DNA of 64,000 nt, taken from positions 248,001 to 312,000 of the forward strand of contig NZ_BCQT01000004.1 of assembly GCF_001552215.1 (NCBI RefSeq). The letters are read 5' to 3'. Source of the stretch: Actinomadura macra NBRC 14102. Its GTDB lineage: Bacteria; Actinomycetota; Actinomycetes; Streptosporangiales; Streptosporangiaceae. Shown here one piece after another: positions 38,771 to 55,536 of the stretch; position 1 is the first letter of the stretch, and every line of letters starts with the position of its first letter. The position numbers and the translations under genes were made by a program. The notes beneath the pieces were generated by a model that had not been told where the DNA came from, did no database searches, and saw nothing but the letters and a program-made list of their open reading frames with translations.

Positions 38771-38849
38771 TCACTGTCAGTGAACATGTGGCGCGTGCCA
38801 CATCGGGAGATGGATGATTAGGGGTGGCAGGGGGCGCGCGCCCCCTGCC
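38771..38849. promoter_or_regulatory. Cluster of three perfect palindromes in a divergent promoter
   Basis: TCACTG-t-CAGTGA at 38771-38783, ATGTGGC-gcgt-GCCACAT at 38786-38803, and the perfect 24-base palindrome at 38826-38849 (GGCAGGGGGCGC, then its exact complement). They lie between the small-protein pair and the XRE/TPR regulator. The first two are operator-like; the last is very GC-rich and may be an operator or a cruciform/RNA hairpin. Confidence 0.65.
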
Positions 38850-38873
38850 TTCGACGATCGGAGGGTGCCTCGC

Positions 38874-40515: not shown

Positions 40516-40617
40516 TTCGTTCAAGGGCTTAGCCCGTGAAGTATCAGTGGGCTTCTACGCGACTCGCCGCGGCATGGATTCGCGTCTACGACAAGCCCCG
40601 CAGCATGATCGGCCGAG

Positions 40618-40701
40618 TGCGGGCGGGGGGACTCGAACCCCCACGGTGTCGCCACCAACAGGACCTAAACCTGCCGCGTATACCTACTTCGCCACGCCCG
40701 C
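40618..40701 (-). tRNA. tRNA-Leu, anticodon TAG
   Basis: 84 bases. The acceptor stem GCGGGCG pairs with CGCCCGC, discriminator A at 40618. The anticodon stem GCAGG/CCTGT encloses the loop TTTAGGT with TAG at the middle. A long variable arm (TGGTGGCGACACCG) and the T-arm GGGGGTTCGAGTCCCCC are present. The long variable arm and the anticodon identify leucine (codon CUA). CCA is not encoded. The 3' end faces the atypical module at 38073-40453. Confidence 0.95.
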
Positions 40702-40894: not shown

Positions 40895-41872
40895 GTGAGC
40901 CAGTCCTTCACCCATCGCGTACTGCCGTACGACGGGGTGGACGAGTTCCTCGACGGCGCGCTGCCGTTCCTGCGGGACGGGGTGGACGCCGGCGACCGGG
41001 TGCTCGCGGTAGGCGGCATGGCACGCGAGATGCTGCTGCGGGACGCGCTCGGACCGGCGGCGGCCGGCGTCGAGTTCGCCGATGCCGCCACCTGGTACGT
41101 GCATCCGTGCCGGACGCTCGCCGACTGCCTGAGCGACGCCGACAACACCGCGTGGCAGGGACGGCGGCTGCGCGTCCTCGGCGAGCCGGTGTGGGCAACG
41201 CGCTCGCCGCTGGAGGTCCTGGAGTGGCAGCGGGCCGAGGCGATCCTCAACGTGGCGTTCCGCGACACCGAAGCCGCCTTCCTGTGCACCTACGCGTCGT
41301 CGCTCCCCGCGGGCGTCGTCGCGTCCTCACGTCAGACCCACCCCGAGACGGTCCGCGGCGTCACGGCGCTCCCGAACCCGGGCTACATGGACCCCTGGGC
41401 CTACAGCGCGCAATGCGACCGTGAGCCGCTGCCGGCGCCCCCGCCCGGTGCCGAGTCACTGAAGGTCGACCGTCCCGACCTGTACTGGCTGCGCGCCTAT
41501 GTCAGCGAGTACGCGCGGCAGACCCGGCTGCCCGAGGAGAGTTTGCAGCGCCTCCTCGTCGCTGTCACCGAGATCGTCACCAACGCGCTGCGGCACGGCG
41601 AGCCGCCGATCGTCCTGCGGATGTGGATCGAGGCGTCCGACGATGAGCCCGCCCTCGCGTGCGAGGTCGCCGACGAGGGACGGTGGGACCCCGGGACCGG
41701 CTTCGGGCTCATCCCCCCGCGTCCGGCCGACACCGGCGGCGGCCGGTTCGGGCTGTGGGCGGTCCGGCTGCTGTGCGCAAGCGTCCAGATCCGGTCGGGT
41801 GAAGGGGGCACGACCGTGCGGCTCAGGCTGCGCCTGCCCGCAGTGCCCGCCGCGTCCATCAACGGAGCGTGA
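40895..41872 (+). CDS. RsbA-type anti-sigma regulator: MEDS domain + RsbW-like ATPase (MEDS-A)
   Basis: 325 residues, GTG start. N-terminal MEDS (DcmR-type sensory) domain (about 5-175: FLDGALPFLRDGVDAGDRVLAVG, LGEPVWATRSPLEVLEWQRAEAILN). C-terminal HATPase_c domain (about 195-315) with the N-box AVTEIVTNALRHG, the G1-like CEVADEGRWDP and RFGLWAVRLL. The fold is that of anti-sigma kinases such as RsbW; the MEDS fusion matches Streptomyces RsbA-type proteins. It is the first gene of a four-gene series in which MEDS-ATPase and MEDS-STAS genes alternate. Confidence 0.83.
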   Translation: MSQSFTHRVLPYDGVDEFLDGALPFLRDGVDAGDRVLAVGGMAREMLLRDALGPAAAGVEFADAATWYVHPCRTLADCLSDADNTAWQGRRLRVLGEPVWATRSPLEVLEWQRAEAILNVAFRDTEAAFLCTYASSLPAGVVASSRQTHPETVRGVTALPNPGYMDPWAYSAQCDREPLPAPPPGAESLKVDRPDLYWLRAYVSEYARQTRLPEESLQRLLVAVTEIVTNALRHGEPPIVLRMWIEASDDEPALACEVADEGRWDPGTGFGLIPPRPADTGGGRFGLWAVRLLCASVQIRSGEGGTTVRLRLRLPAVPAASINGA

Positions 41873-41952
41873 GCGAACCCATGCGTTGGGCTTCCAAAAC
41901 ACCGGGATCGGCGTACGCTGGACGGATCCGCGACAACCTCGATGGGCAGGCC

Positions 41953-42870
41953 ATGGAGACACCCTGGTTCGCCAAACGACCCGTCAGCGCCGTACGGCCG
42001 GGAGATCACGGCTGGCTGGCCTACTCCTGCACCGAGGAGCGCGATCGTGTCATCGGCACCTTCGTCCGGGAGGGCCTGCTCACCAACGAGAAGGTCGTCT
42101 ACGTGACGGACGCGCCGGCCGAATTGCTGCCCGGGTTCGACCCGCGGCATCCGATCGACATCGGCACCTACACCAGGACGGGCCAGCTGCGGGTCATCCC
42201 GCGGCGGGACGCCTGCCTCGATCGGCACGGCGCGTTCGCACCCGCGATGATGCTCGAAACGCTGGGCAAGGAGGTCGAGGAGGCGTTCGGCCAGGGCTTC
42301 CGTGCCGTCCGGCTGACGACCGACCACAGCTGGGTGCTCCACGGCCCCGGGCGTGCCGGCCTGCACCAGATGCTCGGTTGCGAGCATCGCGTCGGCGACG
42401 CCGTCTCGCCCAGCACCATGGCGATGGCGATCTGCCAGGTCGACAAACACGCCCTCACACATGACGAACTGGTCGCCCTACGGGATACCCATGAGGTCCT
42501 GGTGGAAGTGAACCCCGAATTCGACGACGGGATCTTGAAGATCGTGCGCACTTTCAAGCCCGACGGGCTGCGCGTCGAGGGCGAGTTGGACGCCGCCCGG
42601 CACGCCGTGTTCGCCGAGAAGCTGACCCAGGTGGGCAAGGGCCGACGGCGCGTCCACCTCGACTTCTCCCGGCTCGGCTTCATCGACCTCGGCGGGCTCA
42701 ACCTGCTGGCGCAGCACGCCACCGGGCTGCCCGCCGACGACGCCCTGGTGCTCGACCACCTCCCAGCCGACGTGGAGAACGTCATCGAGCTGGTGGGCTG
42801 GCACCGGCTGCCCGGCCTGGCCCGGGGAAGCGAGGGCACCCTCCCGAAGACGGAGGGCATCGGCCGATGA
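41953..42870 (+). CDS. MEDS + STAS protein (MEDS-B), putative anti-anti-sigma factor
   Basis: 305 residues. MEDS domain (about 8-185: KRPVSAVRPGDHGWLAYS, VREGLLTNEKVVYVTD, MAMAICQVDKHALT), then a STAS domain (about 205-300: DGLRVEGELDAAR, HLDFSRLGFIDLGGLNLL). ATG 41953 is chosen because the product then begins METPWFAKRP, closely matching METLWSVRRP of the paralogue at 43874; a GTG at 41869 would couple it to the previous gene. In SpoIIAA the equivalent of DLGG is DSSG, with the second Ser phosphorylated; here it is Gly. Confidence 0.82.
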   Translation: METPWFAKRPVSAVRPGDHGWLAYSCTEERDRVIGTFVREGLLTNEKVVYVTDAPAELLPGFDPRHPIDIGTYTRTGQLRVIPRRDACLDRHGAFAPAMMLETLGKEVEEAFGQGFRAVRLTTDHSWVLHGPGRAGLHQMLGCEHRVGDAVSPSTMAMAICQVDKHALTHDELVALRDTHEVLVEVNPEFDDGILKIVRTFKPDGLRVEGELDAARHAVFAEKLTQVGKGRRRVHLDFSRLGFIDLGGLNLLAQHATGLPADDALVLDHLPADVENVIELVGWHRLPGLARGSEGTLPKTEGIGR

Positions 42871-43784
42871 CGCTGGAGCACAGAGCGTTCCTGTACAAGG
42901 GCACCGACGAGTTCCTGTCCGTCGCCGTCCCGTACCTGGAGTCGGGGCTGGAGAAGGACCAGGCCGTCGTCGCCGTGGTGCGCGAACCCCACCTGTCCGC
43001 GCTGCGCGACGTCCTCACCGTGCACGGGGAGACGATCCAGTACTTCGACTCGGCGGTGTTCTACCAGCATCCCGTCCACACTCTGCGCGACTACCAGACG
43101 ATCGTCTCGACGAGCATGCCGCGCACCGTGTGCGCGCTCGCCGAACCCGTCTGGGACGGGTGGGACGAGCAGCAGACACAGGAATGGATCCGCTACGAGT
43201 CGCTGATCAACGTCGTGTTCGCGGGGTCGGGCGCGCGGGCGCTGTGCCCCTACGACAGCGGCGAGCTGACCCCGCACGTGCTGGACGAGGCGCGGCGGAC
43301 GCATCCGCTGCTCCTGCACGACGGCCGCAACGGCGTCAACGAGGAGTACGTCGACCCGGCGACGTTCGGGGCGGGCTGCGACCGCGCCCGCCGTCCGGGA
43401 CGCCCGGACGGCGCGGAGTACCTGCCGATCAAAGGCACCGACCTGCACGAGTTGCGCGCGTTCGTCGCCGAGCGGGCGCTGACGCACGGGCTGGCCAGGC
43501 AACCCGCGCAAAACTTCATCACCGCCGTCAACGAGGTCGCGGCGAACGCCCTCCAGCACGGCATCCCGCCGATGGGCCTGTGGACGTGGCGCGACGACGC
43601 CGACCTCGTCTGCGAGATCGGCGACAACGGCTTCTGGCAGCCCAGCCCGCTCACCGGATTCATCCCTCCCGACTCGGCACTACAACGCGGCTTCGGCCTG
43701 TGGACCGTCCGGCTCCTGGTCGACCTCATGGAACTGCGCGCGGGGTGGGACGGCACCTTCGTACGCCTGCGCGTCCGACGGTGA
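42867..43784 (+). CDS. RsbA-type anti-sigma regulator: MEDS domain + RsbW-like ATPase (MEDS-C)
   Basis: 305 residues, overlapping the stop of MEDS-B (ATGA). MEDS domain (about 1-170: FLSVAVPYLESGLEKDQAVVAVV, LAEPVWDGWDEQQTQEWIRYE). HATPase_c domain (about 190-300) with N-box AVNEVAANALQHG, G1-like CEIGDNGFW and QRGFGLWTVRLL. The ATP-binding residues look intact. Probable anti-sigma or switch kinase paired with the flanking MEDS-STAS proteins. Confidence 0.83.
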   Translation: MTLEHRAFLYKGTDEFLSVAVPYLESGLEKDQAVVAVVREPHLSALRDVLTVHGETIQYFDSAVFYQHPVHTLRDYQTIVSTSMPRTVCALAEPVWDGWDEQQTQEWIRYESLINVVFAGSGARALCPYDSGELTPHVLDEARRTHPLLLHDGRNGVNEEYVDPATFGAGCDRARRPGRPDGAEYLPIKGTDLHELRAFVAERALTHGLARQPAQNFITAVNEVAANALQHGIPPMGLWTWRDDADLVCEIGDNGFWQPSPLTGFIPPDSALQRGFGLWTVRLLVDLMELRAGWDGTFVRLRVRR

Positions 43785-43873
43785 CCTGTTTCGCGCTAAG
43801 TCTCAGATACTGGAAAACCCTGGCGGAAAGCTCACCGCATCGCTCGGCTCACCCGTCGTAACCTGGACACGTC

Positions 43874-44692
43874 ATGGAGACGCTCTGGTCCGTCCGCAGG
43901 CCGGTCCGCGATCTGCGGCCCGGCGACCACGCATGGCTCGCCTACGCCAACGAGGAGGAGCAGCGTCACGTCGCCGGGGCCTTCGTCCGGGACGGGCTCC
44001 TCGCCCGCGAGAAGGTCGTCTACATGGCGGCCTCGGTGAAGGACGCCGTTCCCGGCGTGCCGCCGGACGCGCCCGCCGGGCTCCTGACGTTCCTGCCGAT
44101 CGGCAGTCCGTTCGACCCACGCGCGGCGGCCGGGGCGCTGGCCGCCGAGATCGCGCAGGCGAAACGGCGGGGCCTGCGCGCCGTCCGGATCGCCGCCGAC
44201 CTGACCTCGGCCCTGCGCGCCCCCGACGGCCTGGAACGCACGCTCGTCTTCGAACGGCACCTGGAGCGGACGGTGCCGCCGAGCACGCACATCACGGCAG
44301 TCTGCCAGGTCGACCGGCGCCGCTGCCGCCGCAGCGACCTGGAGGCGCTGTGCGCGAGCCACGCCGTGCTGGCCGCGCCGGACCCCGAGTTCGAGGACGC
44401 CGTACTGAAGATCGTTCGAACGTTCCAGCCCGCCGGGCTGTCACTGTCGGGCGAGCTCGACGCGTCCCGGCACGCGGTCCTCGACCAGGCGCTGGCCTCG
44501 GTGCTGTCCCCCGACAACACCCGCGAGATCCACCTGGACCTCGCGGGTCTCGGCTTCATCGACCTCGGCGCGATCAACATCCTCGCCGACATCGCCGTCC
44601 GCCGCACCGGCCCCGGCCGCCTCGTCCTGGACCGTATGTCGCCGCAGCTCCGCGCCGTCCTGGAAACCGTCGGCTGGACGATGTTGTTTTGA
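43874..44692 (+). CDS. MEDS + STAS protein (MEDS-D)
   Basis: 272 residues, ATG 43874. MEDS domain (about 1-160: RRPVRDLRPGDHAWLAYAN, VRDGLLAREKVVYMAA, HITAVCQVDRRRCR), then STAS (about 175-270: AGLSLSGELDASRHAVLD, HLDLAGLGFIDLGAINIL). The phosphoserine position of SpoIIAA-like proteins reads DLGA, so no Ser or Thr. Nearest relative in the window is MEDS-B. About 90 bases separate it from MEDS-C. A repeat element starts directly at its stop codon. Confidence 0.82.
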   Translation: METLWSVRRPVRDLRPGDHAWLAYANEEEQRHVAGAFVRDGLLAREKVVYMAASVKDAVPGVPPDAPAGLLTFLPIGSPFDPRAAAGALAAEIAQAKRRGLRAVRIAADLTSALRAPDGLERTLVFERHLERTVPPSTHITAVCQVDRRRCRRSDLEALCASHAVLAAPDPEFEDAVLKIVRTFQPAGLSLSGELDASRHAVLDQALASVLSPDNTREIHLDLAGLGFIDLGAINILADIAVRRTGPGRLVLDRMSPQLRAVLETVGWTMLF

Positions 44693-44777
44693 ATCCCGGC
44701 CCAAGCGGGCTCGCCTGGCGGCTCGCCCCCTTGACCATGATTTGCGAGCGCGACATCGCTTCGCGTGACGGTTGAGG
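44693..44777 (-). repeat. Dispersed intergenic repeat, copy 2 (short form)
   Basis: Reverse-oriented match to 9472-9613. The ends (CTCAaCCGTCACGCGA and GGGCCGGGATT), the GCGAAGCGATG...GCGCTCGC block and the G.A-mismatch hairpin (GGGC-GA-GCC-gcca-GGC-GA-GCCC) are conserved, but the inner duplication of copy 1 is missing. It abuts the stop codon of MEDS-D, so it may act as its 3' end. Confidence 0.6.
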
Positions 44778-44780
44778 TTG

Positions 44781-44802
44781 CCGCAGGGTTCTGAACCTGC
44801 GG
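44781..44802 (+). terminator. Hairpin terminator after the first MEDS cluster
   Basis: CCGCAGG and CCTGCGG form a 7-base stem with an 8-base loop, followed by a T-rich GTCTCTTGCTCT. It would end transcripts of the 40895-44692 operon. Confidence 0.5.
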
Positions 44803-44881
44803 GTCTCTTGCTCTCGGACGGGCGTATCCAACGGCCTCTGTCCTGCTGGGCGGGGTGGCGCGCTTGTTAGGCGGGCTCGGC

Positions 44882-45385
44882 CTATGGGGTTCTCGTCGCG
44901 GACGGGCGTGCGTCTGGTGGATGTGAGCCTGACGGCGTCGGCTTGGAGTTCCCCGTTTTGGACGGCGTCGGTTTGGGGGCCGCTGGTGTGGACGGCGTCA
45001 CGGTTTGCGGCGGTGGGGCGGCGGTCGGCCTCGGGTCCGGTGTGTGCGACGGTTCGCTCGTCGGACCGCTGGGCTCCGGCGGCGAGGAGGGCGTGACCGG
45101 GGGGCGCGGCGTGGTGGTCGAGGCCGGCGGGCCGAGGGGGCTTGGCGACTCCTGTCGTCCGGTCCCTCGGCCCGGCCACAGGAGCACGGCCGCCACGATG
45201 ACGACCGCGGCCGTGACGGCCGCCGCGAGGATCGGGAACGTCCAGCGCCGGACGCCGCGGACCGGCGAGGCCGCCGCCGCCCGTCCCGCCTTCTGGAAGC
45301 GGCGGACGGTCTCCGGGCCGGCGTGGATCTCGTCGGCCGCCGCGCGGTAGTGCGCGCGCAGCAGGGCATCGAGCTCATCGCTCAT
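44882..45385 (-). CDS. Membrane protein with Pro/Ser/Thr-rich extracellular tail, partner of the ECF sigma factor
   Basis: 167 residues. A cytoplasmic N-terminal region (about 1-47, DELDALLRAHYRAAADEIHAG, with no zinc site), one membrane helix (about 49-70, FPILAAAVTAAVVIVAAVLLW), then a disordered extracellular stretch rich in Pro, Ser and Thr. Its ATG overlaps the end of the sigma-factor gene by 11 bases. Position and topology suggest an anti-sigma factor, but no recognised anti-sigma domain is visible. Confidence 0.7.
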   Translation of the reverse strand: MSDELDALLRAHYRAAADEIHAGPETVRRFQKAGRAAAASPVRGVRRWTFPILAAAVTAAVVIVAAVLLWPGRGTGRQESPSPLGPPASTTTPRPPVTPSSPPEPSGPTSEPSHTPDPRPTAAPPPQTVTPSTPAAPKPTPSKTGNSKPTPSGSHPPDARPSATRTP

Positions 45386-45896
45386 GGGCCCGGCCCTCCC
45401 TCATGTGCTCCCGCAGCGCCGCCATGGCGCGCGCGGTGTGGCTCTTCACCGTTCCCCGGGAGATCCCGAGCGTCTCGGCGATCTCGTGTTCGCTCAGGTC
45501 GCACCAGTACCGCAGTACGACCACGGCACGCTGCTTGGCGGGCAGCGCGCGGAGCACCTCGTCCAGGTCGCCCCCGGGGATTCCCGCGACCGGGGGCGCC
45601 GCGGCGAGGCGTTCCACGTCCATCACCGAACCGACCGGTGTGTCCCGGCGGCGGGCCCGCCGCTTGTTCTCGTCGATCGCGAGGTTGACCAGTACCCGGC
45701 GCGTGTACGCCTCGGGGTTGCCCGACGCGACGCGACGCCATCGCCGCGCGACCCGCTCGTAGGCGATCTGCAGCAGGTCCTCCGCGAGGTGCCGGTCGTA
45801 GACCATGAACACGGCGGTGCGCAGCAGGCGGCCCGCGGTGGCGGTCACGAACTCCTCGAACGTGACCTCCGCACCGCGGGGCTCCTGGGTGCTCAA
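45375..45896 (-). CDS. ECF sigma factor (SigE-like family)
   Basis: 173 residues. Region 2 (FVTATAGRLLRTAVFMVYDRHLAEDLLQ, then AYERVARRWRRV) and region 4 (LPAKQRAVVVLRYWCDLSEHEI and LGISRGTVKSHTARAMAALRE), a minimal ECF sigma factor. The start is uncertain; TTG 45896 gives the usual N-terminus (LSTQEPRG...). The gene downstream encodes a membrane protein that is probably its regulator. Convergent with the first MEDS cluster, so a functional link is possible but unproved. Confidence 0.85.
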   Translation of the reverse strand: MSTQEPRGAEVTFEEFVTATAGRLLRTAVFMVYDRHLAEDLLQIAYERVARRWRRVASGNPEAYTRRVLVNLAIDENKRRARRRDTPVGSVMDVERLAAAPPVAGIPGGDLDEVLRALPAKQRAVVVLRYWCDLSEHEIAETLGISRGTVKSHTARAMAALREHMREGRAHER

Positions 45897-45912
45897 CGTG
45901 GACAGACCGCAC

Positions 45913-46482
45913 CTACCCCCGGCTGGGCGGCATCGCGTTCGGGGTGCCGCGCGGAGGCGTCGGCGTGGGCGACAGCCGGGACGGACTCGGCCGCACCGTC
46001 GGCGGGGCGGTCGGCGTCGGCTTCCCCGTCGGCGGGGCGGTCGGGGTCGGCGTCGGCTCCGCGGACGGTGGAGCGGTCGGCTCCGGCGCGCAGGTCGGCT
46101 TGCCCCCGGGCGGCCTGGTGGCCGTGGGCCGGGGCTTGGGCGGGCGCGACGCAGTCGCCGTCGGTCGGGGCTTGGGCGGGCGCGACGGAGTGGCCGTCGG
46201 TCGGGGCTTGGGCGGGTGCGACGGGGTGGCCTTCGGCTCGGCGAAGCCGGCCTTCTTGGTCGGCCGCGGCGGTGCCGAGGGTGACGGGCAGCCCGGGTCG
46301 GTCGGCGAGGGGCTGGGCTTGGGTGGGCGCGTCGCCACCGCACCCTGCGCGGCGACCGGCCTCACCTCCGGCGATCCGCCCGGCCCCGCGGCCAGCCAGA
46401 TCCCGGCGGCCAGGAGACCCGTCCCGCTGAATCCGGCCAGGACGACCGCCGGCCAGCGGCGGATGCGACCCTTGTCGATCAT
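45913..46482 (-). CDS. Pro/Thr-repeat single-pass membrane protein
   Basis: 189 residues. Short basic N-terminus, one membrane helix (about 12-32), then an extracellular low-complexity region. It contains a 12-residue unit, RPPKPRPTAT plus two, repeated about three times (about 88-125), followed by PTPTAPP-type repeats. The repeat is visible in the DNA as a near-identical unit at about 46138-46232. Two cysteines flank the repeats. It lies 17 bases before the sigma-factor start and could be in the same unit. Function unknown, wall-spanning stalk likely. Confidence 0.65.
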   Translation of the reverse strand: MIDKGRIRRWPAVVLAGFSGTGLLAAGIWLAAGPGGSPEVRPVAAQGAVATRPPKPSPSPTDPGCPSPSAPPRPTKKAGFAEPKATPSHPPKPRPTATPSRPPKPRPTATASRPPKPRPTATRPPGGKPTCAPEPTAPPSAEPTPTPTAPPTGKPTPTAPPTVRPSPSRLSPTPTPPRGTPNAMPPSRG

Positions 46483-46571
46483 GATGCTCCTCGAGGCGAA
46501 GTTTCCTTACACCCCGATAAACCCCCGCTCGCCGTGCCGCGGTTGTCACGCCTGCCGGTTTTCTCCTCGGG

Positions 46572-47192
46572 TCAGGTCAGTCCGGCGGCGGACAGGGCTT
46601 CGGGGAGCAGCTCCGCGAGGGTGCGGAAGGCACGGCCCCGGTGGCTGATCGCGTCCTTGTCGGCCGGGGACATCTCGGCGGTCGTGCGGGACTCACCGTC
46701 CGGGAGGAAGACCGGGTCGTAGCCGAAACCTCCGGTTCCGCGCGGGGTCCGCACGATCGTGCCGCGCATCCGCGCCTCGACGCAGTGCTCCACGCCGCCC
46801 GGCAGGACGAGCGCGGCGGCGCAGACGAAATGGCCGCCGCGCAGGCCGTCGGGGACGTCGGCGATCTGGTCGAGGAGCAGCTGGAGGTTGGCGGCGTCCT
46901 TGTCACCGGTCGCCGCGCCGAACCGGCCCGACCAGCGGGCCGACAGCACGCCCGGCATGCCGTTCAGCGCGTCCACGCACAGGCCCGAGTCGTCGGCGAC
47001 GGCGGGCAGGCCGGTGTGCGCGGTGATCGCGCGGGCCTTGAGCAGCGCGTTGCCCTCGAAGGTCAGCTCGGTCTCGGGCACGTCGGGGGCATCGGCGAAG
47101 GCATCGAGCCCGGCGACCTCGATGTCGGTCAGGATGCGGTGCAGCTCGGCGACCTTGCCCCTGTTACGGGTCGCCAGGACGATCCGGGTCAC
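46572..47192 (-). CDS. rdgB: XTP/dITP pyrophosphatase (RdgB/HAM1)
   Basis: 206 residues, GTG start overlapping the rph stop. [16 protein letters not shown] at the N-terminus binds the triphosphate; [26 protein letters not shown] (catalytic Asp/Ser) and [15 protein letters not shown] are the family motifs; SHRGRAF is at the C-terminus. It removes deaminated purine triphosphates from the nucleotide pool. Part of the rph-rdgB pair conserved across actinobacteria (Rv1340-Rv1341 in M. tuberculosis). Confidence 0.95.
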
Positions 47193-47908
47193 GTGGCGAG
47201 CGCCGCGGCCTGGAGGCGGGTGAGTTCGGCGCAGCCGCCGGCCGCGAGGTCGAGCAGCGCGTCCAGCTCGGCGCGGTCGAACGGGGTGCCCTCGGCGGTG
47301 CCCTGCACCTCCACGAAGCGGCCGTCACCGGTGCAGACGACGTTCATGTCGGTCTCGGCGGCCGAATCCTCCTCGTAGCACAGATCGAGGCGGGCCTCGC
47401 CGGCGACCACACCGACGCTGACCGCCGCCACCGAGGTGATCAGCGGGTCGCCCCGCAGCAGCCGGCGGCCCCGCATCCACGACACCGCGTCGGCGAGCGC
47501 GATGTAGGCGCCGGTGATCGCGGCGGTGCGGGTGCCGCCGTCGGCCTGGAGGACGTCGCAGTCGAGCTGGACGGTGTTCTCGCCGAGCGCCTTGAAGTCC
47601 AGGCAGGCGCGGATGGAACGGCCGATGAGCCGGGAGATCTCGTGGGTGCGTCCGCCGACCCGGCCCCGGATGGACTCGCGGTCGTTGCGGGTGTTGGTGG
47701 CGCGCGGCAGCATCGCGTACTCGGCGGTGACCCAGCCGAGGCCGCTCTCGCGCCGCCAGCGGGGCACCGACTCCTGGACGGAGGCGGCGCACAGCACCCG
47801 GGTGCCGCCGAACTCGATCAGCGCCGACCCCTCCGCGTGGTCGAGCCAGCCACGCTGGACGCGGACGGGACGGAGCTGGTCGGATGCGCGATCATCGGGG
47901 CGAGCCAT
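47189..47908 (-). CDS. rph: Ribonuclease PH
   Basis: 239 residues from ATG 47908. Phosphorolytic 3'-5' exoribonuclease that trims the 3' ends of tRNA precursors. Motifs: [50 protein letters not shown] and [15 protein letters not shown]. The open frame extends 189 codons further upstream only as a shadow of the MBL gene. Its stop overlaps the rdgB start (GTGA). Confidence 0.95.
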
Positions 47909-47928
47909 GCGCCCCACCTTAACGGCAC

Positions 47929-48684
47929 TCAGAGGTCGTACTCGGCGCCCACGTACGCGAGTTCGACGTCGCCGTCGTAGTGGCTCGCCTTCGCCTCCTT
48001 GAGGGAGACGTCCCGGTCGTTCCACGGCACGAGGTGCGTGAGAACAAGCCTTCCGACACCGGCGGCGGCGGCGTGCTCGCCGGCCTCCCGCGCGGTCAGG
48101 TGCAGCTCCGACGGGAGCCCGGGGCCGTCCAGGAAGGACGCCTCGCACAGGAACAGGTCGGCGCCGCGGGCCAGGTCGACCAGCGTCTCGGACGCGCCGG
48201 TGTCGCCGGAGTAGGCGAGGGCCTTGCCGCCGTGCTCGATGCGGAACGCGTACGCCTCGACCGGGTGCGGCATCAGCGCGGTCGTCACCCGGAACGGGCC
48301 GATGTCGTACGGTCCGCGGCGCAGCGTCTCGAAGTCGAACGTCCCGGTCATACCGGGGTCGGGATCGAGATCGTATGCCTTCGCCAGGCGGACGGCGGTG
48401 CCCTCGGGCCCGTGCACCGGGATCCGCGGCGGCGGGCCGCTCGGGCGGTAGGTCCGGGCGACCCAGTAGCCGCACAGGTCGAGGCAGTGGTCGGCGTGCA
48501 GGTGCGAGATGCAGACGGAGTCGATCTCGTACAGCGGGTGGAAGCGCTGCAGCGTCCCGAGCGCGCCGTTGCCGAGGTCGAGCAGCATGGCGTAGCCGTC
48601 CGCCTCGATCAGGTAGCTGGACGCGGGGCTATCCGGCCCCGGAAAGCTGCCGGAGCAGCCGATCACAGTGACCCGCACGCTCAC
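47929..48684 (-). CDS. MBL-fold hydrolase, Rv1339-like (probable cyclic-nucleotide phosphodiesterase)
   Basis: 251 residues, GTG start. Metallo-beta-lactamase fold with [11 protein letters not shown] (first metal motif), [20 protein letters not shown] (bridging Asp) and LTHLVPW near the C-terminus. Order and likeness match M. tuberculosis Rv1339, reported as an atypical class II cAMP phosphodiesterase, in the murI-Rv1339-rph-rdgB string. Some relatives resemble RNase Z, so the substrate is not settled by sequence. Confidence 0.83.
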
Positions 48685-48708
48685 TCCTCCTCTTGTGTCC
48701 CCGAGGAA

Positions 48709-49536
48709 TCAGGTGGTCAGAGCCTTGGTCAGGGTGGTCTCCACCGACCCGATCTCCGGCCCCAGGAACCGGCGGCCGAGCGTGGCGAACACCTCGGGGT
48801 CCCCGGTCGCGCGGAAGCGGTGACACGGCTCTGGCATCGACTCCGCCCGTGCGAGCCCACGGTCGTGCAGCACTCGATACACGTCCTTGGCGGTCTCGTC
48901 GGCACTTGACACCAGTGTGACCCCGTCCCCGACGACATACGAGATGACCCCGGTCAGATGTGGGTAGTGCGTACAGCCGAGAATGAGGGTGTCGCATCCG
49001 GCGTCCACGATCGGCTGGAGGTAGACGCGGGCGACGTCCAGCAGTTCCTCGCTCATCGTCACGCCCGACTCGACGAACTCGACGAACCGCGGGCAGGCGG
49101 TGCTGACCAGCTCGATGTGCGGCGCGGCGGCGAACGCGTCCTCGTAGGCCCGGCTGTTGACGGTGGCCTCGGTGGCGATCAGGCCGACCCGCCCGTTGCC
49201 GGTGGCGCGTGCGGCGCGCCGGGTGGCGGGGTTGATGACCTCGATCACCGGGACGTCGTAGCGTTCCCGGGCGTCGCGCAGCATCGCCGAGCTGGCGCTG
49301 TTACAGGCGATCACCAGCATCTTCACGCCCTCGTCGACGAGCTGGTCGAGCATCTCCAGCGCGAACGCGCGCACCTGCGCGATGGGACGGGGCCCGTACG
49401 GCTGGCGCGCGGAGTCACCGAGGTAGACGATCGGCTCGTTCGGCAGCTGGTCGAGGATCGCCCGTGCGACGGTGAGCCCGCCGAATCCGCTGTCGAAGAT
49501 GCCGATCGGCGAATCGTTGCCTGGTGAATCTGACAT
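48709..49536 (-). CDS. murI: Glutamate racemase
   Basis: 275 residues. Cofactor-independent racemase making D-glutamate for peptidoglycan. [16 protein letters not shown] at the N-terminus, [12 protein letters not shown] (first catalytic Cys), and [11 protein letters not shown] (second Cys) are all intact. [12 protein letters not shown] is also typical. Lies in the conserved cysM-murI-MBL-rph-rdgB block. Confidence 0.95.
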
Positions 49537-49727
49537 GGTGCATAAGGCTAGGCGAGTTCCTCGCGGGTAGGCGCGTCATGCGTCGTACATCACATGGCCA
49601 CGCGTCGGCAATAGGCGCAGTTCACGGGTGCTGCGGGCGATGCGGTCGCCGTACGGGGCGAAACGCCGGTGAAACGCTTCACGAGTGATCCGTCCGTGCG
49701 GGGCCGGATCGAGGCTCGGTGGGACGG

Positions 49728-50516
49728 TCAGCGCCCCTCGCGGGCGATCTGGCGGCTCTGCGCGACGAGGCGTCCGGTGGAGTCCCAGACCTCGACCTCC
49801 TCGTCGAACCAGCCGCCGGACAGGAGCCGTCCGGTGCCGTGGAGGCTGAGCCAGCCCGGGGCGGGGACGGCCCGCATGTGCCAGGTGAGCTCGACGGTGG
49901 GCGCCCATCCCTTGGCGCCGAGGTTGAGGGCGACGGGCGGCAGCGCGTCCACGGCGAGGGCCAGCGCGAACGCGTCGGGCTCGTGGGGGTCGCGGAGGCG
50001 GAACCAGGCGCGGATCTCGGGGCTGCCACTCGGGTGCCCGCCCATCCAGCCCATCGTGGCGGCGTCGAAACGCATGTCGATCTGGCCGGCGAAGCCCTGC
50101 TCGCCCGCCGTGGTGAGGAAGTCGGTGCACTCCTCCAGCGGCGGGATCGACGGGACGGGGTGGGGCCCGGCCCAGGACGCCTCGGTGCCCGCGTCGAGCG
50201 TGCCGGTGGTGATCAGCGCGTCCACGACGCGCCGGCCGTCCTGGACGAGGGTGACCAGGGACGTGGCGGCGGTGCGGCCGGTCTTCCGCGGCTCGACGAT
50301 CACCTCGGCGGGGCCGGGACCGGCCACGCGCAGGAACGTCGCCGCGGTCGAGACGGGGTGGGCGTGCGGGGAGGCATCGATGGCGGCGCGGTCGAGGACG
50401 GCCATGAGGTAGCCGCCGTTGATCGCCTCGGCGAACCCGTAGTCCCCGTGGAGGACGGTCTTGTAGCGGCCCTCACCGGTCCGCTCGACGGCGGTGGCGT
50501 CGCCGAACCCGCTCAT
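49728..50516 (-). CDS. Acyl-CoA thioesterase, TesB-like double hotdog
   Basis: 262 residues from ATG 50516 (GGGAG upstream); a GTG six codons earlier is possible. Two hotdog repeats: N-terminal DYGFAEAINGGYLMAVLDRAA and C-terminal LTWHMRAVPAPGWLSLHGTGRL, with VWDSTGRLVAQSRQIAR closing the second. It hydrolyses acyl-CoA thioesters; chain length unknown. Its place between murI and cysM is where M. tuberculosis has a rhomboid protease (Rv1337), so this is a local replacement. Confidence 0.8.
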   Translation of the reverse strand: MSGFGDATAVERTGEGRYKTVLHGDYGFAEAINGGYLMAVLDRAAIDASPHAHPVSTAATFLRVAGPGPAEVIVEPRKTGRTAATSLVTLVQDGRRVVDALITTGTLDAGTEASWAGPHPVPSIPPLEECTDFLTTAGEQGFAGQIDMRFDAATMGWMGGHPSGSPEIRAWFRLRDPHEPDAFALALAVDALPPVALNLGAKGWAPTVELTWHMRAVPAPGWLSLHGTGRLLSGGWFDEEVEVWDSTGRLVAQSRQIAREGR

Positions 50517-50653
50517 GCGCGCTCCCGTCTCCACGGCGGCGGCCCGCCGACCCGATTCTAGAATCCTGTTCGAATACGGACTCTACCGCGCCATCCGAGC
50601 GGTCCCCGGCCCGGGGGTGCCGTCGGGGGCGGGAGTGGCGTCGTGGGCGGGGG

Positions 50654-51896
<1,243 letters not shown>

Positions 51897-51985
51897 CGCG
51901 ATGATCTCCTTAGGTCGTACGGGGCTTCCCGCCCCAGCGTGACAACCGGGCGGGGCGCGGGGGAATTCCGGGCGTGTACCGCGCG

Positions 51986-52105
51986 TCAGAGACAGTCGTA
52001 GACGACCGCGGCGCGCGAGTGCCCGAACAGATAGCTCTGCACGGGTGGCACGACGGCGGAACGGATGCGGCGCCGTGCGCCCGCCCTGTGCCCGCTCGTC
52101 CCCAT
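51986..52105 (-). CDS. Possible 39-residue leader peptide before cysO
   Basis: A short frame between mec and cysO begins MGTSGHRAGARRRIR and ends VVYDCL, with its single Cys codon two codons before the stop. Actinobacterial sulfur-metabolism genes are often preceded by short Arg-rich leader peptides. A hairpin is possible between its stop and cysO (CGCCCC and GGGGCG, about 51931-51956). Its ribosome site is weak. Attenuation by cysteine supply is speculation. Confidence 0.3.
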   Translation of the reverse strand: MGTSGHRAGARRRIRSAVVPPVQSYLFGHSRAAVVYDCL

Positions 52106-52149
52106 GACGACCAGTTTACCGGCCGCCGTCCGGCCCTTCCCCGCCACGG

Positions 52150-52566
52150 TCAGGCGTACGACTCGACGACCGTGACCTCTTCCTCGGTCACCTCGCCGTC
52201 CACGATCCGGTACGACCGGAACTCGGTCTCGTCCGCCTCGCGCGTGGAGACGAGAACGTAGTGGGCGTTCGGCTCGGACGCGTACGAGATGTCGGTCCGG
52301 GACGGGTACGCCTCGGTGGAGGTGTGCGAGTGGTAGATCACGACGGGCTCCTCGTCCCGGTCGTCCATCTCGCGCCACACCTTGAGCTGCTCAAGGGAGT
52401 CGAAGCGGTAGAACGTCGGGGAGCGCTCGGCGTTGGTCATCGGGACGTACCGGGCGGGGCGGTCGGACCCGATCGGGCCGGCGACGACGCCGCAGGCCTC
52501 GTCGGGGTGGTCCGCGCGCGCATGCGCGACGATCCGGTCAACCAGGGCACGCTCGATCGTCAGCAT
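52150..52566 (-). CDS. mec: JAMM peptidase Mec (CysO-cysteine peptidase)
   Basis: 138 residues from ATG 52566. MPN+/JAMM zinc peptidase: H79, H81, S89 and D92 in IYHSHTSTEAYPSRTD, with DEACGVVAG near the N-terminus. In M. tuberculosis Mec (Rv1334) frees cysteine from the CysO-cysteine adduct. It precedes cysO and cysM on the same strand, giving a complete thiocarboxylate cysteine-synthesis set. Confidence 0.93.
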   Translation of the reverse strand: MLTIERALVDRIVAHARADHPDEACGVVAGPIGSDRPARYVPMTNAERSPTFYRFDSLEQLKVWREMDDRDEEPVVIYHSHTSTEAYPSRTDISYASEPNAHYVLVSTREADETEFRSYRIVDGEVTEEEVTVVESYA

Positions 52567-52621
52567 GACGTGAAGGCTACCGGGCGTCGGCGGGGCGCTC
52601 TGCACCCTGCTCGCACGCCGC

Positions 52622-53632
52622 TCACCCGAGCTTGACGTGCATGCGGATGCGCGTGCCGTCCATGCCGGAGCGGATCTCCACGATGTGGCACAGCCGCCGG
52701 ACGGCCCACATCGCGGCCTCGCCGCCGCGCTGCCCGCGCGGCGGCGCGTAGCCCAGGAACCGGTCGGTGAGGGCCCGCCCCGGGTCGCTGACGTCGCAGA
52801 CGAGCGCGCCCTCCTCGGCCCACAGCCACAGCGCGCCCCGGCCGCCTCCCTCGCGGATGATGTTCGTGGCGACCTCGTTCACGGCGAGGACGAACGGGAG
52901 CGAGCGCTCCTTCGGGAGCCCGAGCCGGCGGGCTTCGGCGCCGAGGAAGTCGCGCACGCCGGGCAACTCCCCGGCGGCGAACGGCCTGCGGGCCGCGATC
53001 GACGGTGGTGGCGGCAGCGGGACGGCGTTGCACTCGGCGTAGAACGCGGCCGGGTCGGTGAAGCCCTCGCTCGGCCGCTCCCCGTCCGGCCCGGCGATCT
53101 CGGGGTGGGTGCGGGCCGCGTCCGCCAGGACGTGCCCGGGCAGCGCCGACGCGTCGTAGGCGCACATGATCGAGGTCGGCGTGCCGGCGAACGCCACGTT
53201 CAGGATCGCCTCGTGCCGCTTCCACTCGCGGGTCTCCAGCGGCGTGAGCCCGTCCCAGACCGGCTCGGTGAGCAGCCGGAGCCGCCCGCGCGGCCACCAG
53301 TCGGCGCGCGTCCGGTCGTAGTAGGAGGCCAGGGCGTGCATCGGGCCCTGGAACCAGTCGGCGGAGTCGATGAACTCGACCGGCGCGGCCGTCCCGGTGC
53401 CGAGCCGCTCGCGCAGGAGGGCGGCCGTGTCGGGCGCGGCGATGACGACCACCGCGTCGCCGGCGCGGCACCCCGCCCGCAGGAAGGGGACGGCGGTGAG
53501 CGCGAACTCGCCGCGCGTCGGGTACGGCAGCGCCCGGTGCACGAGCACGTCACGGCCCTGCTCGCCGAGGGCCGGACCGGGGTCGGCGGCCTGCCGGGCG
53601 GGCGGCTCCGCGGAGAAGGAGAAGGCGATCAT
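52622..53632 (-). CDS. RsbA-type regulator with MEDS domain and atypical ATPase domain (MEDS-E)
   Basis: 336 residues from ATG 53632, overlapping the stop of MEDS-F (ATGA). MEDS domain (about 30-205: FALTAVPFLRAGCRAGDAVVVIA, LTEPVWDGLTPLETREWKRHE). HATPase-like domain (about 225-333) keeps the N-box Glu and Asn in AVNEVATNIIREG but reads CDVSDPGRALT at G1 and GGEAAMWAVRRL where MEDS-A and MEDS-C have a glycine loop (GRFGLW, RGFGLW). ATP binding may be weakened or lost. Third gene of a minus-strand MEDS trio. Confidence 0.82.
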   Translation of the reverse strand: MIAFSFSAEPPARQAADPGPALGEQGRDVLVHRALPYPTRGEFALTAVPFLRAGCRAGDAVVVIAAPDTAALLRERLGTGTAAPVEFIDSADWFQGPMHALASYYDRTRADWWPRGRLRLLTEPVWDGLTPLETREWKRHEAILNVAFAGTPTSIMCAYDASALPGHVLADAARTHPEIAGPDGERPSEGFTDPAAFYAECNAVPLPPPPSIAARRPFAAGELPGVRDFLGAEARRLGLPKERSLPFVLAVNEVATNIIREGGGRGALWLWAEEGALVCDVSDPGRALTDRFLGYAPPRGQRGGEAAMWAVRRLCHIVEIRSGMDGTRIRMHVKLG

Positions 53633-54477
53633 CGGACCGCCTCCCGGACGACACCGGGCGCGGTGTCCCAGCCGGACACGCGCAGCATCAGTTCCACGCA
53701 GCCGGGCATCGAACGCAAGATCACCTGCCGGTCGAGGACGGTGCTGGTCCGGTTGGCCTCGATCAGGGTCCGCAGCCCGTCCAGGTCGCAGAAGTCGAGC
53801 CGGGACAGGTCGAGGCAGAGGTGCGCGCCGCCCGGCCCGGCGGACGCGTCGAAGTCGCGCAGCGCCGCGACCAGGGCGGGCAGGGTGGACTCGTCGATCG
53901 CCCCGGACAGCCGCAGCCCGGGCGGCGCGAACAGCGGGGTGATCGTCAGAACGCCGTCGTCGAACACGTCGTCGGCGCGGACGCGCGTGCCGTGGTGCTG
54001 GTCCACCAGGCGCAGGTGCCCGGTGCCGAACCAGCGCCGGTCGTACTGGCACAGCGCCATGACCCGCGACCCGGGCGCGGTGACCGCGCTGTGGAGTGCG
54101 TCCTCGAACGCGGCGAACGGTTCCGTGCCGGGCCAGCCGCGCGGGGACGGCGACGCCTCCGCCGTGACGCGCACACCCGGGACACGCGCGCCCGCACCGT
54201 CAGCGCGCGTCACGGCCCTGATCGCGTCCGCGATGTCCGCGTCCGCAGGCAGAACGATCAGCCGGTCGGCACCGGCGCCCGCGCCGGCCTCGGCGAGCAG
54301 CCGGCCGGCCGCGGACTCCGCCGGATCGCCGTCGACCAGGCAGACGACGGCGTGCCCGGCGCGCAGCCCGCCCCGGACGTACGCCGCCATGATCGCGTCG
54401 CGTTCAGCGTCGGTGTCGTAGGCGAGGCATGCGTGATCGCCTGGCAGCATCTCGCCGACCGCCTTGGAGTGCGCCAT
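53629..54477 (-). CDS. MEDS + STAS protein with Asp at the phosphoserine position (MEDS-F)
   Basis: 282 residues. MEDS domain (about 1-180: SKAVGEMLPGDHACLAYD, YVRGGLRAGHAVVCLVD, VMALCQYDRRWF), then STAS (about 190-280: GLRLSGAIDESTLPALV, CLDLSRLDFCDLDGLRTL). The position that is phosphorylated Ser in SpoIIAA (DSSG) is Asp (DLDG), a constitutive negative charge. Directly coupled to MEDS-E by ATGA overlap. Confidence 0.82.
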   Translation of the reverse strand: MAHSKAVGEMLPGDHACLAYDTDAERDAIMAAYVRGGLRAGHAVVCLVDGDPAESAAGRLLAEAGAGAGADRLIVLPADADIADAIRAVTRADGAGARVPGVRVTAEASPSPRGWPGTEPFAAFEDALHSAVTAPGSRVMALCQYDRRWFGTGHLRLVDQHHGTRVRADDVFDDGVLTITPLFAPPGLRLSGAIDESTLPALVAALRDFDASAGPGGAHLCLDLSRLDFCDLDGLRTLIEANRTSTVLDRQVILRSMPGCVELMLRVSGWDTAPGVVREAVR

Positions 54478-54621
54478 GCGACCTCCTCGGGAGCCGGTCA
54501 GTGGTCAACGTATCAAGGCGGGACGGACAGGTCGACGGAGGACGAACAGGACGAGAGCGGCGGGCGAGGGTGGCGGGCGAGGGCGGCCACGCCGGAGCGG
54601 GTGGCGGCGGGTCCGCGTCGT

Positions 54622-55536
54622 TCAGCCCGGCCCGTCCTCGATCGCCACGCCAGGCCGCGCGACCAGCCCGGACGAGCGGAGCCGCTCACCGAGCCCCGGC
54701 GGGACGCCGCGCAGCAGCAACCCCCGGTTCGGGCCGAGGTCGGGACGGTCGGCGCGGGTCAGCAGGCGCAGCCCGTCGTCGTCGCAGCCGGTGACGCCGC
54801 CGAGATCCAGACAGAGCAGGCCGGTACGGGTCGAGATCGACGCGAGGACCTTCTCGGCCGCCGGCCGGGTCGCCCCGTCGATCACACCCGACAGTTCCAC
54901 GCCCGGCGGGCTGAAGATCGGCGTGATCCGCAGCGTCCCGTCGTCGTAGTAGTCGTTCACCCGCACCCGCCCCATGTGGCAGGACTCCAGCTCCTCCAGG
55001 TAGGCGGCGTTGAACCAGCGCCGGTCGAACTGGCAGATCGCCATCGCCTTGATGTCGGTGGTCATGAAGACCTCATCGAGCATCCGCTCGAAGTCGCCGT
55101 GCTGGTCGGTGCCGGGCCAGCGGCGCAGCGAGAACCGCGCCTCGCCGGCGATGCGCACCCCGGAGTAGCCCTGGACGAGCGCGAGATCGATCTCGGTCGC
55201 CATCAGCTCGATGCTCTCCTGCGGGTCGAACCGCCCGCTGGCGAGGAAGGTCTCCTCCGCGGTCCGGACGACGAAGTGTCCCGCCTCCATCGCCTCGGCC
55301 AGGTCGACCCGCTCGCCCTCCGCGGGCATCACGGCGTCCTTCTCGTCGCCGGTCAGCCAGTCGAGCACGTCCCCGGAGCGGACGGCGTCGGAGATGTAGA
55401 TGATCTTGTGCCCGGCGCGGACGCCGTCCCGGACGTAGGCGGCCATGATCGACCGCCGTTCCTCGTCGTTGTCGAAGAGCAGGCACAGATGATCGCCGAG
55501 CTTCATCTCGCGGACGGCCTTCCGGTGGGCGGTCAT
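54622..55536 (-). CDS. MEDS + STAS protein with Asp at the phosphoserine position (MEDS-G)
   Basis: 304 residues. ATG 55536 has an excellent ribosome site (CGGAGG, 5 bases before) and gives MTAHRKAVREMKLGDH, matching the start of MEDS-F; ATG 55557 is an alternative. MEDS domain (about 5-200: LCLLFDNDEERRSIMAAYVRDG, IKAMAICQFDRRWFNAAYL), STAS (about 215-300: GVELSGVIDGATRPAAEKVL, CLDLGGVTGCDDDGLRLL). The phosphosite reads DDDG. First gene of the MEDS trio. Confidence 0.82.
   Translation of the reverse strand: MTAHRKAVREMKLGDHLCLLFDNDEERRSIMAAYVRDGVRAGHKIIYISDAVRSGDVLDWLTGDEKDAVMPAEGERVDLAEAMEAGHFVVRTAEETFLASGRFDPQESIELMATEIDLALVQGYSGVRIAGEARFSLRRWPGTDQHGDFERMLDEVFMTTDIKAMAICQFDRRWFNAAYLEELESCHMGRVRVNDYYDDGTLRITPIFSPPGVELSGVIDGATRPAAEKVLASISTRTGLLCLDLGGVTGCDDDGLRLLTRADRPDLGPNRGLLLRGVPPGLGERLRSSGLVARPGVAIEDGPG

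What the first reader, a model, noticed from the sequence alone, without database searches (positions are those of the whole stretch)
40895..55536. Seven MEDS-domain signalling proteins in two clusters: a candidate multi-component partner-switch
Three MEDS+ATPase proteins (40895, 42867, 52622) and four MEDS+STAS proteins (41953, 43874, 53629, 54622) are encoded within 15 kb. The first cluster alternates ATPase, STAS, ATPase, STAS; the second is STAS, STAS, ATPase. ATGA overlaps couple members in both clusters. RsbA-type MEDS-ATPases are known as anti-sigma factors, but fusing the same sensor to both the kinase and the antagonist class, and repeating the set, suggests a network in which one ligand type is sensed by both partners. 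The function is inferred.
Basis: partly seen in the sequence, partly recalled or inferred. Interest (0 to 1): 0.75.

Follow-up and report, generated by a model that had tools for sequence, protein, structure and literature searches.

The report
Sensor-linked anti-sigma partner switch genes
Two gene clusters in an Actinomadura-like bacterium encode matched protein pairs that probably hold and release a stress-response sigma factor; both partners carry the same kind of sensor domain, and the releasing partner lacks the amino acid through which such switches are normally turned off, so the sensor may have taken over that job.

Summary
Three MEDS-HATPase (A) and four MEDS-STAS (S) genes lie in 15 kb, all over Pfam's MEDS cut-off; A1-A3 belong to NCBIfam's RsbA anti-sigma family. 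The pairing recurs elsewhere: cluster 1 is a vertically kept operon (A-S-A core in 50 of 71 named loci) beside rdgB; cluster 2 is accessory (A3 in 31 of 65 genus genomes). In a few relatives the module stands beside SigB-type sigma genes, once as STAS - MEDS-ATPase - SigB on one strand. New here: the STAS domains lack the phosphorylatable Ser/Thr. It is present in 1 of 131 MEDS-STAS (without a MEDS-ATPase neighbour), 0 of 112 with such a neighbour, 0 of 16 STAS-only neighbours of MEDS-ATPases; other STAS have it in 9 of 10 (same loci) and 10 of 17 (own genome). A proteins mostly keep their ATP-binding residues, and both MEDS classes keep a His-Glu-Cys-His set. Best reading: an RsbW/RsbV-like partner switch in which MEDS sensing, not antagonist phosphorylation, selects the partner. 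Sigma target, ligand and binding are untested, and a trans-kinase role for A is the main rival. MEDS-ATPase anti-sigma factors were proposed before; this is a new variant of a known kind.

The parts
40895..41872 (+). A1: MEDS + HATPase_c_2, RsbA family, first gene of cluster 1
   Evidence: HATPase N-box Glu and Asn kept
41953..42870 (+). S1: MEDS + STAS_2; STAS site reads FIDLGG (Leu where SpoIIAA has Ser)
42867..43784 (+). A2: MEDS + HATPase_c_2, RsbA family; start overlaps S1 stop (ATGA)
43874..44692 (+). S2: MEDS + STAS_2; site FIDLGA; gene optional in relatives
52622..53632 (-). A3: MEDS + HATPase_c_2, RsbA family; G2 box reads GEAAMW; start overlaps S3 stop (ATGA)
53629..54477 (-). S3: MEDS + STAS_2; site FCDLDG (Leu in 10 of 10 copies seen)
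54622..55536 (-). S4: MEDS + STAS_2; site GCDDDG (acidic in 6, Ala in 4 of 10 copies seen)

Best explanation
The clusters encode anti-sigma / anti-anti-sigma partner switches of the RsbW/RsbV kind. A proteins (RsbA family) hold a SigB/F-type sigma factor; the S protein encoded just upstream is the cognate antagonist that draws A off the sigma. Because S has no phosphorylatable Ser/Thr at the canonical place, the usual off-switch (A phosphorylates its antagonist, a phosphatase resets it) cannot act there; the MEDS domains on both partners are the likely input that makes or breaks the S-A contact. In cluster 1 S1 stands between A1 and A2, with S2 optional; in cluster 2 S3 pairs with A3, and S4, with an acidic or Ala site, may be a weaker or regulatory companion. 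Shown: domain make-up, recurrent pairing, co-divergence, absent phosphosite, kept MEDS residues, sigma linkage in a few relatives. Inferred: binding, ligand control, sigma target.
For: RsbA-family membership. A-S-A core in 50 of 71 loci found by an S1-like query; outside the near relatives 10 of 14 stretches picked by a MEDS-STAS hit have a MEDS-ATPase next to it and 3 more a plain HATPase. S and A distances correlate: r 0.78 (21 pairs), 0.91 (13 pairs away from the cluster-1 site), 0 of 2000 permutations as high; cognate beats swapped partner in 7 of 8 tests. Phosphosite Ser/Thr in 0 of 112 MEDS-STAS with a MEDS-ATPase neighbour and 0 of 16 STAS-only neighbours. H, E, C, H kept in 153, 152, 155, 155 of 155 A and 115, 115, 116, 117 of 117 S. 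SigB-type sigma beside MEDS-ATPases in L049, L053, L252, L256 and an annotated SigF in L260.
Against: No interaction, ligand or sigma contact measured. Sigma linkage is rare: 2 of 112 loci and 2 of 50; none in the window. Most A proteins keep the N-box (Glu 153, Asn 149 of 155), which suggests that ATP binding or kinase activity still matters. In S. coelicolor, SigB control by RsbA was reported to use RsbV (SCO7325) in a phosphorylation mechanism and not RsbB (PMC8346170, passages), which favours the trans-kinase rival if RsbA there is of this family. Other STAS of the own genome also lack Ser in 7 of 17, so loss of the site is not unique. Part of the co-divergence may be plain linkage.
Confidence: 0.55

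Rival explanations
1. Trans-kinase: A proteins are ordinary kinases that phosphorylate Ser-bearing antagonists (RsbV/BldG type) encoded elsewhere; S proteins are phosphorylation-proof competitors or adaptors, so the switch still runs on phosphorylation.
For: N-box Glu and Asn kept in 153 and 149 of 155 A; 10 of 17 other scored STAS of the own genome carry Ser; in L053 a Ser-bearing STAS and a SpoIIE phosphatase stand beside the module; S. coelicolor RsbA works with RsbV SCO7325 (PMC8346170, passages).
Against: S and A, not A and a Ser-bearing STAS, are the kept neighbours and diverge together; 4 of 24 aligned A proteins lack the N-box Asn, among them those of L049 and L053.
Confidence: 0.25
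2. The module is a partner switch but its client is not a sigma factor, as with RsbT, which acts on a phosphatase.
For: No SigB-type sigma near the module in 110 of 112 loci; one MEDS-STAS (L065) lies among stressosome-like genes.
Against: RsbA-family membership and sigma neighbours in L049, L053, L252, L256, L260.
Confidence: 0.13
3. S is phosphorylated by A at another Ser/Thr, so a classical switch operates at a shifted site.
For: A minority of S have Ser or Thr one or two places later, e.g. FIDLSG, FIDLTG, FIDVSG.
Against: The usual S motifs FIDLGA and FIDLGG (82 of 124) have none in that loop.
Confidence: 0.05
4. Neighbouring MEDS genes are family expansion without partnership.
For: MEDS hits occur in 55 of 61 family genomes.
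Against: Kept order, overlaps, fixed synteny and co-divergence.
Confidence: 0.02

Closest known systems
RsbA-family anti-sigma factors (NCBIfam NF041045); rsbB-rsbA-sigB operon of Streptomyces coelicolor
   Same: A1-A3 pass the family cut-off. A Streptomyces stretch (L252) has STAS, RsbA-family MEDS-ATPase and SigBFG sigma in a row on one strand, the layout reported for rsbB-rsbA-sigB (PMC8346170, passages).
   Different: Here the antagonist carries MEDS too, clusters have two ATPases or two antagonists, and no sigma gene is near. That S. coelicolor RsbA itself is a MEDS-ATPase was not checked.
SpoIIAB-SpoIIAA / RsbW-RsbV partner switches
   Same: HATPase_c_2 and STAS_2 output domains as neighbours; STAS aligns with SpoIIAA and RsbV chains.
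   Different: Sensor domain on both partners; no Ser/Thr at the antagonist phosphosite.
Stressosome RsbR (sensor + STAS) with RsbS and RsbT
   Same: Sensor fused to STAS, kinase-type ATPase as partner.
   Different: The sensor is MEDS; the ATPase carries it too; the phosphosite is absent; no RsbS/RsbT-like genes among the window genes looked at.
MEDS sensors such as DcmR and MEDS regulators of epoxide pathways
   Same: H, E, C, H of MEDS shared with haloarchaeal, mycobacterial and Nocardioides MEDS.
   Different: Output is an anti-sigma-type ATPase or STAS, not a DNA-binding or histidine-kinase part.

Membership tests
RsbA-family anti-sigma factor (NF041045), A1-A3 | Whole-protein score over the curated cut-off of 210 bits | tested here: met
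   296.8, 286.6, 314.8 bits
RsbA-family anti-sigma factor (NF041045), A1-A3 | Binds and inhibits a SigB-type sigma factor | not testable with these tools
   only gene linkage in a few relatives
MEDS domain (PF14417), all seven | Score over Pfam cut-off and the shared H, E, C, H residues | tested here: met
   66.2-105.4 bits, cut-off 29.8; residues invariant in the 11-row alignment
Canonical SpoIIAA/RsbV antagonist, S1-S4 | STAS domain | tested here: met
   STAS_2 34.4-45.9 bits, cut-off 29.2
Canonical SpoIIAA/RsbV antagonist, S1-S4 | Phosphorylatable Ser/Thr after the Asp of the site loop | tested here: not met
   Leu, Leu, Leu, Asp in S1, S2, S3, S4
Canonical SpoIIAB/RsbW kinase, A1-A3 | N-box Glu/Asn and G1/G2 ATP-binding motifs | tested here: inconclusive
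   A1 and A2 keep them; A3 keeps N-box and G1 Asp/Gly but has Ala and Met for the usual G2 Gly and Leu; activity untested
Stressosome RsbR | RsbS and RsbT partners encoded nearby | tested here: not met
   none recognised among window genes read or scanned near the clusters; not every window gene was scanned

The most novel reading that the evidence does not exclude
A class of actinobacterial partner switches runs without antagonist phosphorylation: the STAS partner of MEDS-ATPases has lost the phosphosite, and a small molecule, metal or redox state read by MEDS (on both partners here, on the ATPase alone in the Streptomyces cases) decides whether the ATPase holds the sigma factor or the antagonist.
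Probability: 0.33. Interest if true: 0.75.

Novelty: new variant of a known kind. Interest (0 to 1): 0.55.

Why it matters
RsbA-family proteins pass their cut-off in 34 of 396 genomes drawn from the phylum, yet I found no description of their input. If their linked antagonist cannot be phosphorylated, textbook partner-switch logic does not apply to it, and MEDS becomes a testable direct input to a SigB-type response. It might also explain why RsbB was reported not to be involved in SigB control in S. coelicolor (PMC8346170, passages), if RsbB is of this kind, which was not checked.

Tried and rejected
ECF target: the sigma factor beside cluster 1 (ORF 45375-46343, -) has ECF-type regions 2 and 4. 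Rejected as main target: ECF factors are not usual clients of HATPase anti-sigma factors (recalled), and an ECF/anti-ECF match showed up in only some of the 71 loci.

Recent local array: rejected, cluster 1 is syntenic in named genomes. A and S as recent domain swaps: rejected, MEDS of A and S separate with one change among rows labelled A or S (quick tree, SH-aLRT 85 on that branch; with unlabelled rows counted A needs 3 changes and S 5).

MEDS as KaiC-like fold: weak support here (KaiC chains at E 0.015-0.23 with the MEDS-STAS profile; nothing at E <= 1 with a MEDS-only profile); PMC5847659 lists MEDS as inactivated KaiC-like (passage). Promoter/terminator scan of 40.5-45.5 kb: no promoter-like site, 2 terminator-like against 1.3 expected; repeats showed S1/S2 similarity (172 nt at 71%).

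Limits of the counts: the 40 stretches were picked partly because MEDS hits lay close together, so their pairing rate is biased; the 71 loci (S1-like query) and the 14 outside stretches picked by MEDS-STAS hits are not. Dropped: six loci of genomes seen twice, judged by equal contig lengths (L146, L162, L167, L179, L183, L190); one STAS with a gap at the site (L178). Identical sequences removed. Own-genome hits L111 and L113 were not scored. L060 has a Ser-bearing STAS 0.8 kb upstream of a MEDS gene cut by a contig end; counted as unlinked, it could be a counter-example. Rows are related and the unlinked control is small. Some of the 71 loci end before the fourth gene. A wrong-frame ORF slipped in with the two sigma queries; its matches were ignored.
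Full report
What is there. The window is C4:248001-312000 of a 9.04 Mb genome. Its genus includes G037, whose contig C9 (204,005 bases) has the length of the Spirillospora albida contig of locus L146; the organism is thus an Actinomadura/Spirillospora relative (inference). Seven genes carry MEDS: A1, S1, A2, S2 on + (40895-44692) and, in order of transcription, S4, S3, A3 on - (55536-52622). Scans confirm MEDS + HATPase_c_2 in A (RsbA family, 287-315 bits, cut-off 210) and MEDS + STAS_2 in S. S1/A2 and S3/A3 overlap by ATGA. Of 10 MEDS hits in the genome 7 are here.

Recurrence. MEDS hits occur in 55 of 61 genomes of the family. In 40 stretches from them, chosen partly because MEDS hits lay close together, 21 of 25 genes scored MEDS+STAS stand beside a MEDS-HATPase gene (my count). 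A scan of named genomes with S1-like sequences, blind to the ATPase, gave 71 loci, mostly Actinomadura, also Thermomonospora, Actinocorallia and Actinoallomurus. An A-S-A core is present in 50 of 71, followed in 26 of these by a second MEDS-STAS or a STAS-only gene (L178, with broken-up domains, is counted in both). bcp lies upstream and rdgB downstream wherever seen (rdgB in reach in 57 of 71). Ten loci have S-A only; some loci end at contig ends. Cluster 1 is thus a vertically kept operon. Cluster 2 lies between mec-cysO-cysM and DUF2017-clpS (mec, cysO, cysM and clpS named from memory of the actinobacterial gene order). Of 65 genomes of the genus, 31 have an A3 match at E <= 1e-60 (one in two pieces) and 31 an S4 match at E < 1e-59; by my reading of the tables S4, a second S and A3 stand together on one contig in 18, S-A in 9, A3 without S nearby in 3, and in one A3 is on another contig.

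Pairing. Among 117 distinct S sequences 82 have an A directly downstream on the same strand. In the later set of 131 MEDS-STAS, 91 are S-then-A, 21 A-then-S, 19 have no MEDS-ATPase beside them. In 14 stretches from outside the near relatives picked by a MEDS-STAS hit, 10 have a MEDS-ATPase next to it, 3 a plain HATPase, 1 neither; of 4 Streptomyces RsbA hits picked without regard to STAS, 3 have a STAS gene just upstream. Distances between S proteins and between their A partners correlate (r 0.78, 21 pairs; 0.91, 13 pairs away from the cluster-1 site; 0 of 2000 permutations as high). Where a genome has two pairs, the cognate A fits better than the other in 7 of 8 tests; the exception is in L041. 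Linkage alone could give part of this.

The missing phosphosite. A profile of 19 MEDS-STAS aligns with SpoIIAA; the Ser of 1th8 (Ala in 1tid) falls on Leu of the profile (that this is the phosphorylated Ser58 is recalled). In the first 111 loci and the window 124 MEDS-STAS have Leu 103, Val 8, Ile 6, Ala 4, Met 1, Asp 1, Pro 1. With 20 outside stretches and L027 added and six duplicate genomes removed, 1 of 131 MEDS-STAS has Thr (L242, no MEDS-ATPase beside it); 0 of 112 with a MEDS-ATPase neighbour and 0 of 16 STAS-only neighbours have Ser/Thr, one more being unscorable; of other STAS in these loci 9 of 10 have it. After thinning at 60% identity it is 1 of 50 against 8 of 8. The contrast is weaker in the own genome: of 17 other scored STAS, 10 have Ser and 7 Ala, Cys, Leu or Val (my reading). 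Of 10 S4 copies (own included) 6 have Asp/Glu and 4 Ala; of 10 S3 copies all have Leu.

ATPase and sensor. Of 155 A sequences 153 keep the N-box Glu, 149 the Asn, 151 the G1 Asp, 151 the G2 Gly. Four of 24 aligned A proteins lack the Asn (L045, L049, L053, L056); A3 and two kin have GEAAMW or GEAGMW in the G2 box. Most A proteins thus look able to bind ATP although the linked antagonist has no canonical target. MEDS keeps His, Glu, Cys, His in both classes (153, 152, 155, 155 of 155; 115, 115, 116, 117 of 117), invariant also across the seven window domains and four MEDS of haloarchaea, Mycolicibacterium and Nocardioides. The sensor looks intact on both partners; what it reads is unknown.

Link to sigma factors. 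The own genome has two sigma factors over the SigBFG cut-off, on other contigs. With these as queries SigB-type genes were found in 2 of 112 sequences (L049, L053) and 2 of 50 further loci (L252, L256). In L252 STAS, MEDS-ATPase (412.6 bits, NF041045) and a SigBFG sigma (295.9 bits) follow each other on one strand, the layout given for rsbB-rsbA-sigB of S. coelicolor (PMC8346170, passages). In L053 a SigB-type sigma and an RsbW-like gene, a STAS with Ser, a GAF-ANTAR gene and a PAS-GAF-SpoIIE phosphatase precede S-A. A Streptomyces plasmid has a gene annotated SigF beside a MEDS-ATPase relative; another has STAS and RsbA overlapping by one base.

Mechanism. Most likely A holds a SigB/F-type sigma and S releases it, with MEDS as the input instead of phosphorylation of S. 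Against it: kept N-boxes, rare sigma linkage, and the report that S. coelicolor RsbA works with RsbV SCO7325 in a phosphorylation mechanism and not with RsbB (PMC8346170, passages). The trans-kinase rival therefore stays serious.

Literature. PMC11507031 (passages) says that MEDS was hypothesised to act as a negative regulator of SigB in actinobacteria, citing Anantharaman and Aravind 2005, not held; that paper may also mention MEDS-STAS. Searches of the held open-access papers listed no paper that I recognised as describing the pairing or the lost phosphosite; I read only passages of a few of them. A review of STAS-only proteins (PMC8256260, passages) gives the conserved Ser as the canonical feature.

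Verdict. Observation confirmed, interpretation partly supported, new variant of a known kind. On re-check the own-genome control was corrected from 10 of 16 to 10 of 17 and the selection of the first stretches is now stated; confidence in the main reading was lowered from 0.60 to 0.55 because of the S. coelicolor report.

Noticed in passing
window 38814-40154 (+) and 40617-40701 (-): Between bcp and A1 the window has a 446-aa ORF without a Pfam match at E 0.001 (by eye an Xre-like regulator) and a tRNA-Leu gene.
   Followed up: partly
window 44882-46343 (-): ECF-type sigma factor with a small Pro/Ser-rich neighbour ORF, convergent with S2.
   Followed up: partly
L065 5998-11664: A MEDS-STAS gene lies 2-5 kb from RsbRD_N-STAS, a second STAS, a HATPase and a HATPase-SpoIIE gene: MEDS-STAS in a stressosome-like locus.
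   Followed up: partly
L075 7298-8131: HATPase and STAS domains in one ORF next to a MEDS-STAS gene; its STAS keeps the Ser (FWDSSG).
   Followed up: no
   Followed up: no
L124, L126, L134, L137, L189: The fourth gene of cluster 1 shows STAS but no MEDS match, suggesting loss or divergence of its sensor.
   Followed up: no
G000:C4:197344-197586 (L093) and G000:C30:224-454 (L098): Two STAS genes of MEDS-STAS type without MEDS, both with Val at the site; the second lies directly before a MEDS-ATPase.
   Followed up: partly
L060 11703-13277 (own genome C29): A Ser-bearing STAS 0.8 kb upstream of a MEDS gene cut by the contig end; a possible exception to the rule.
   Followed up: no
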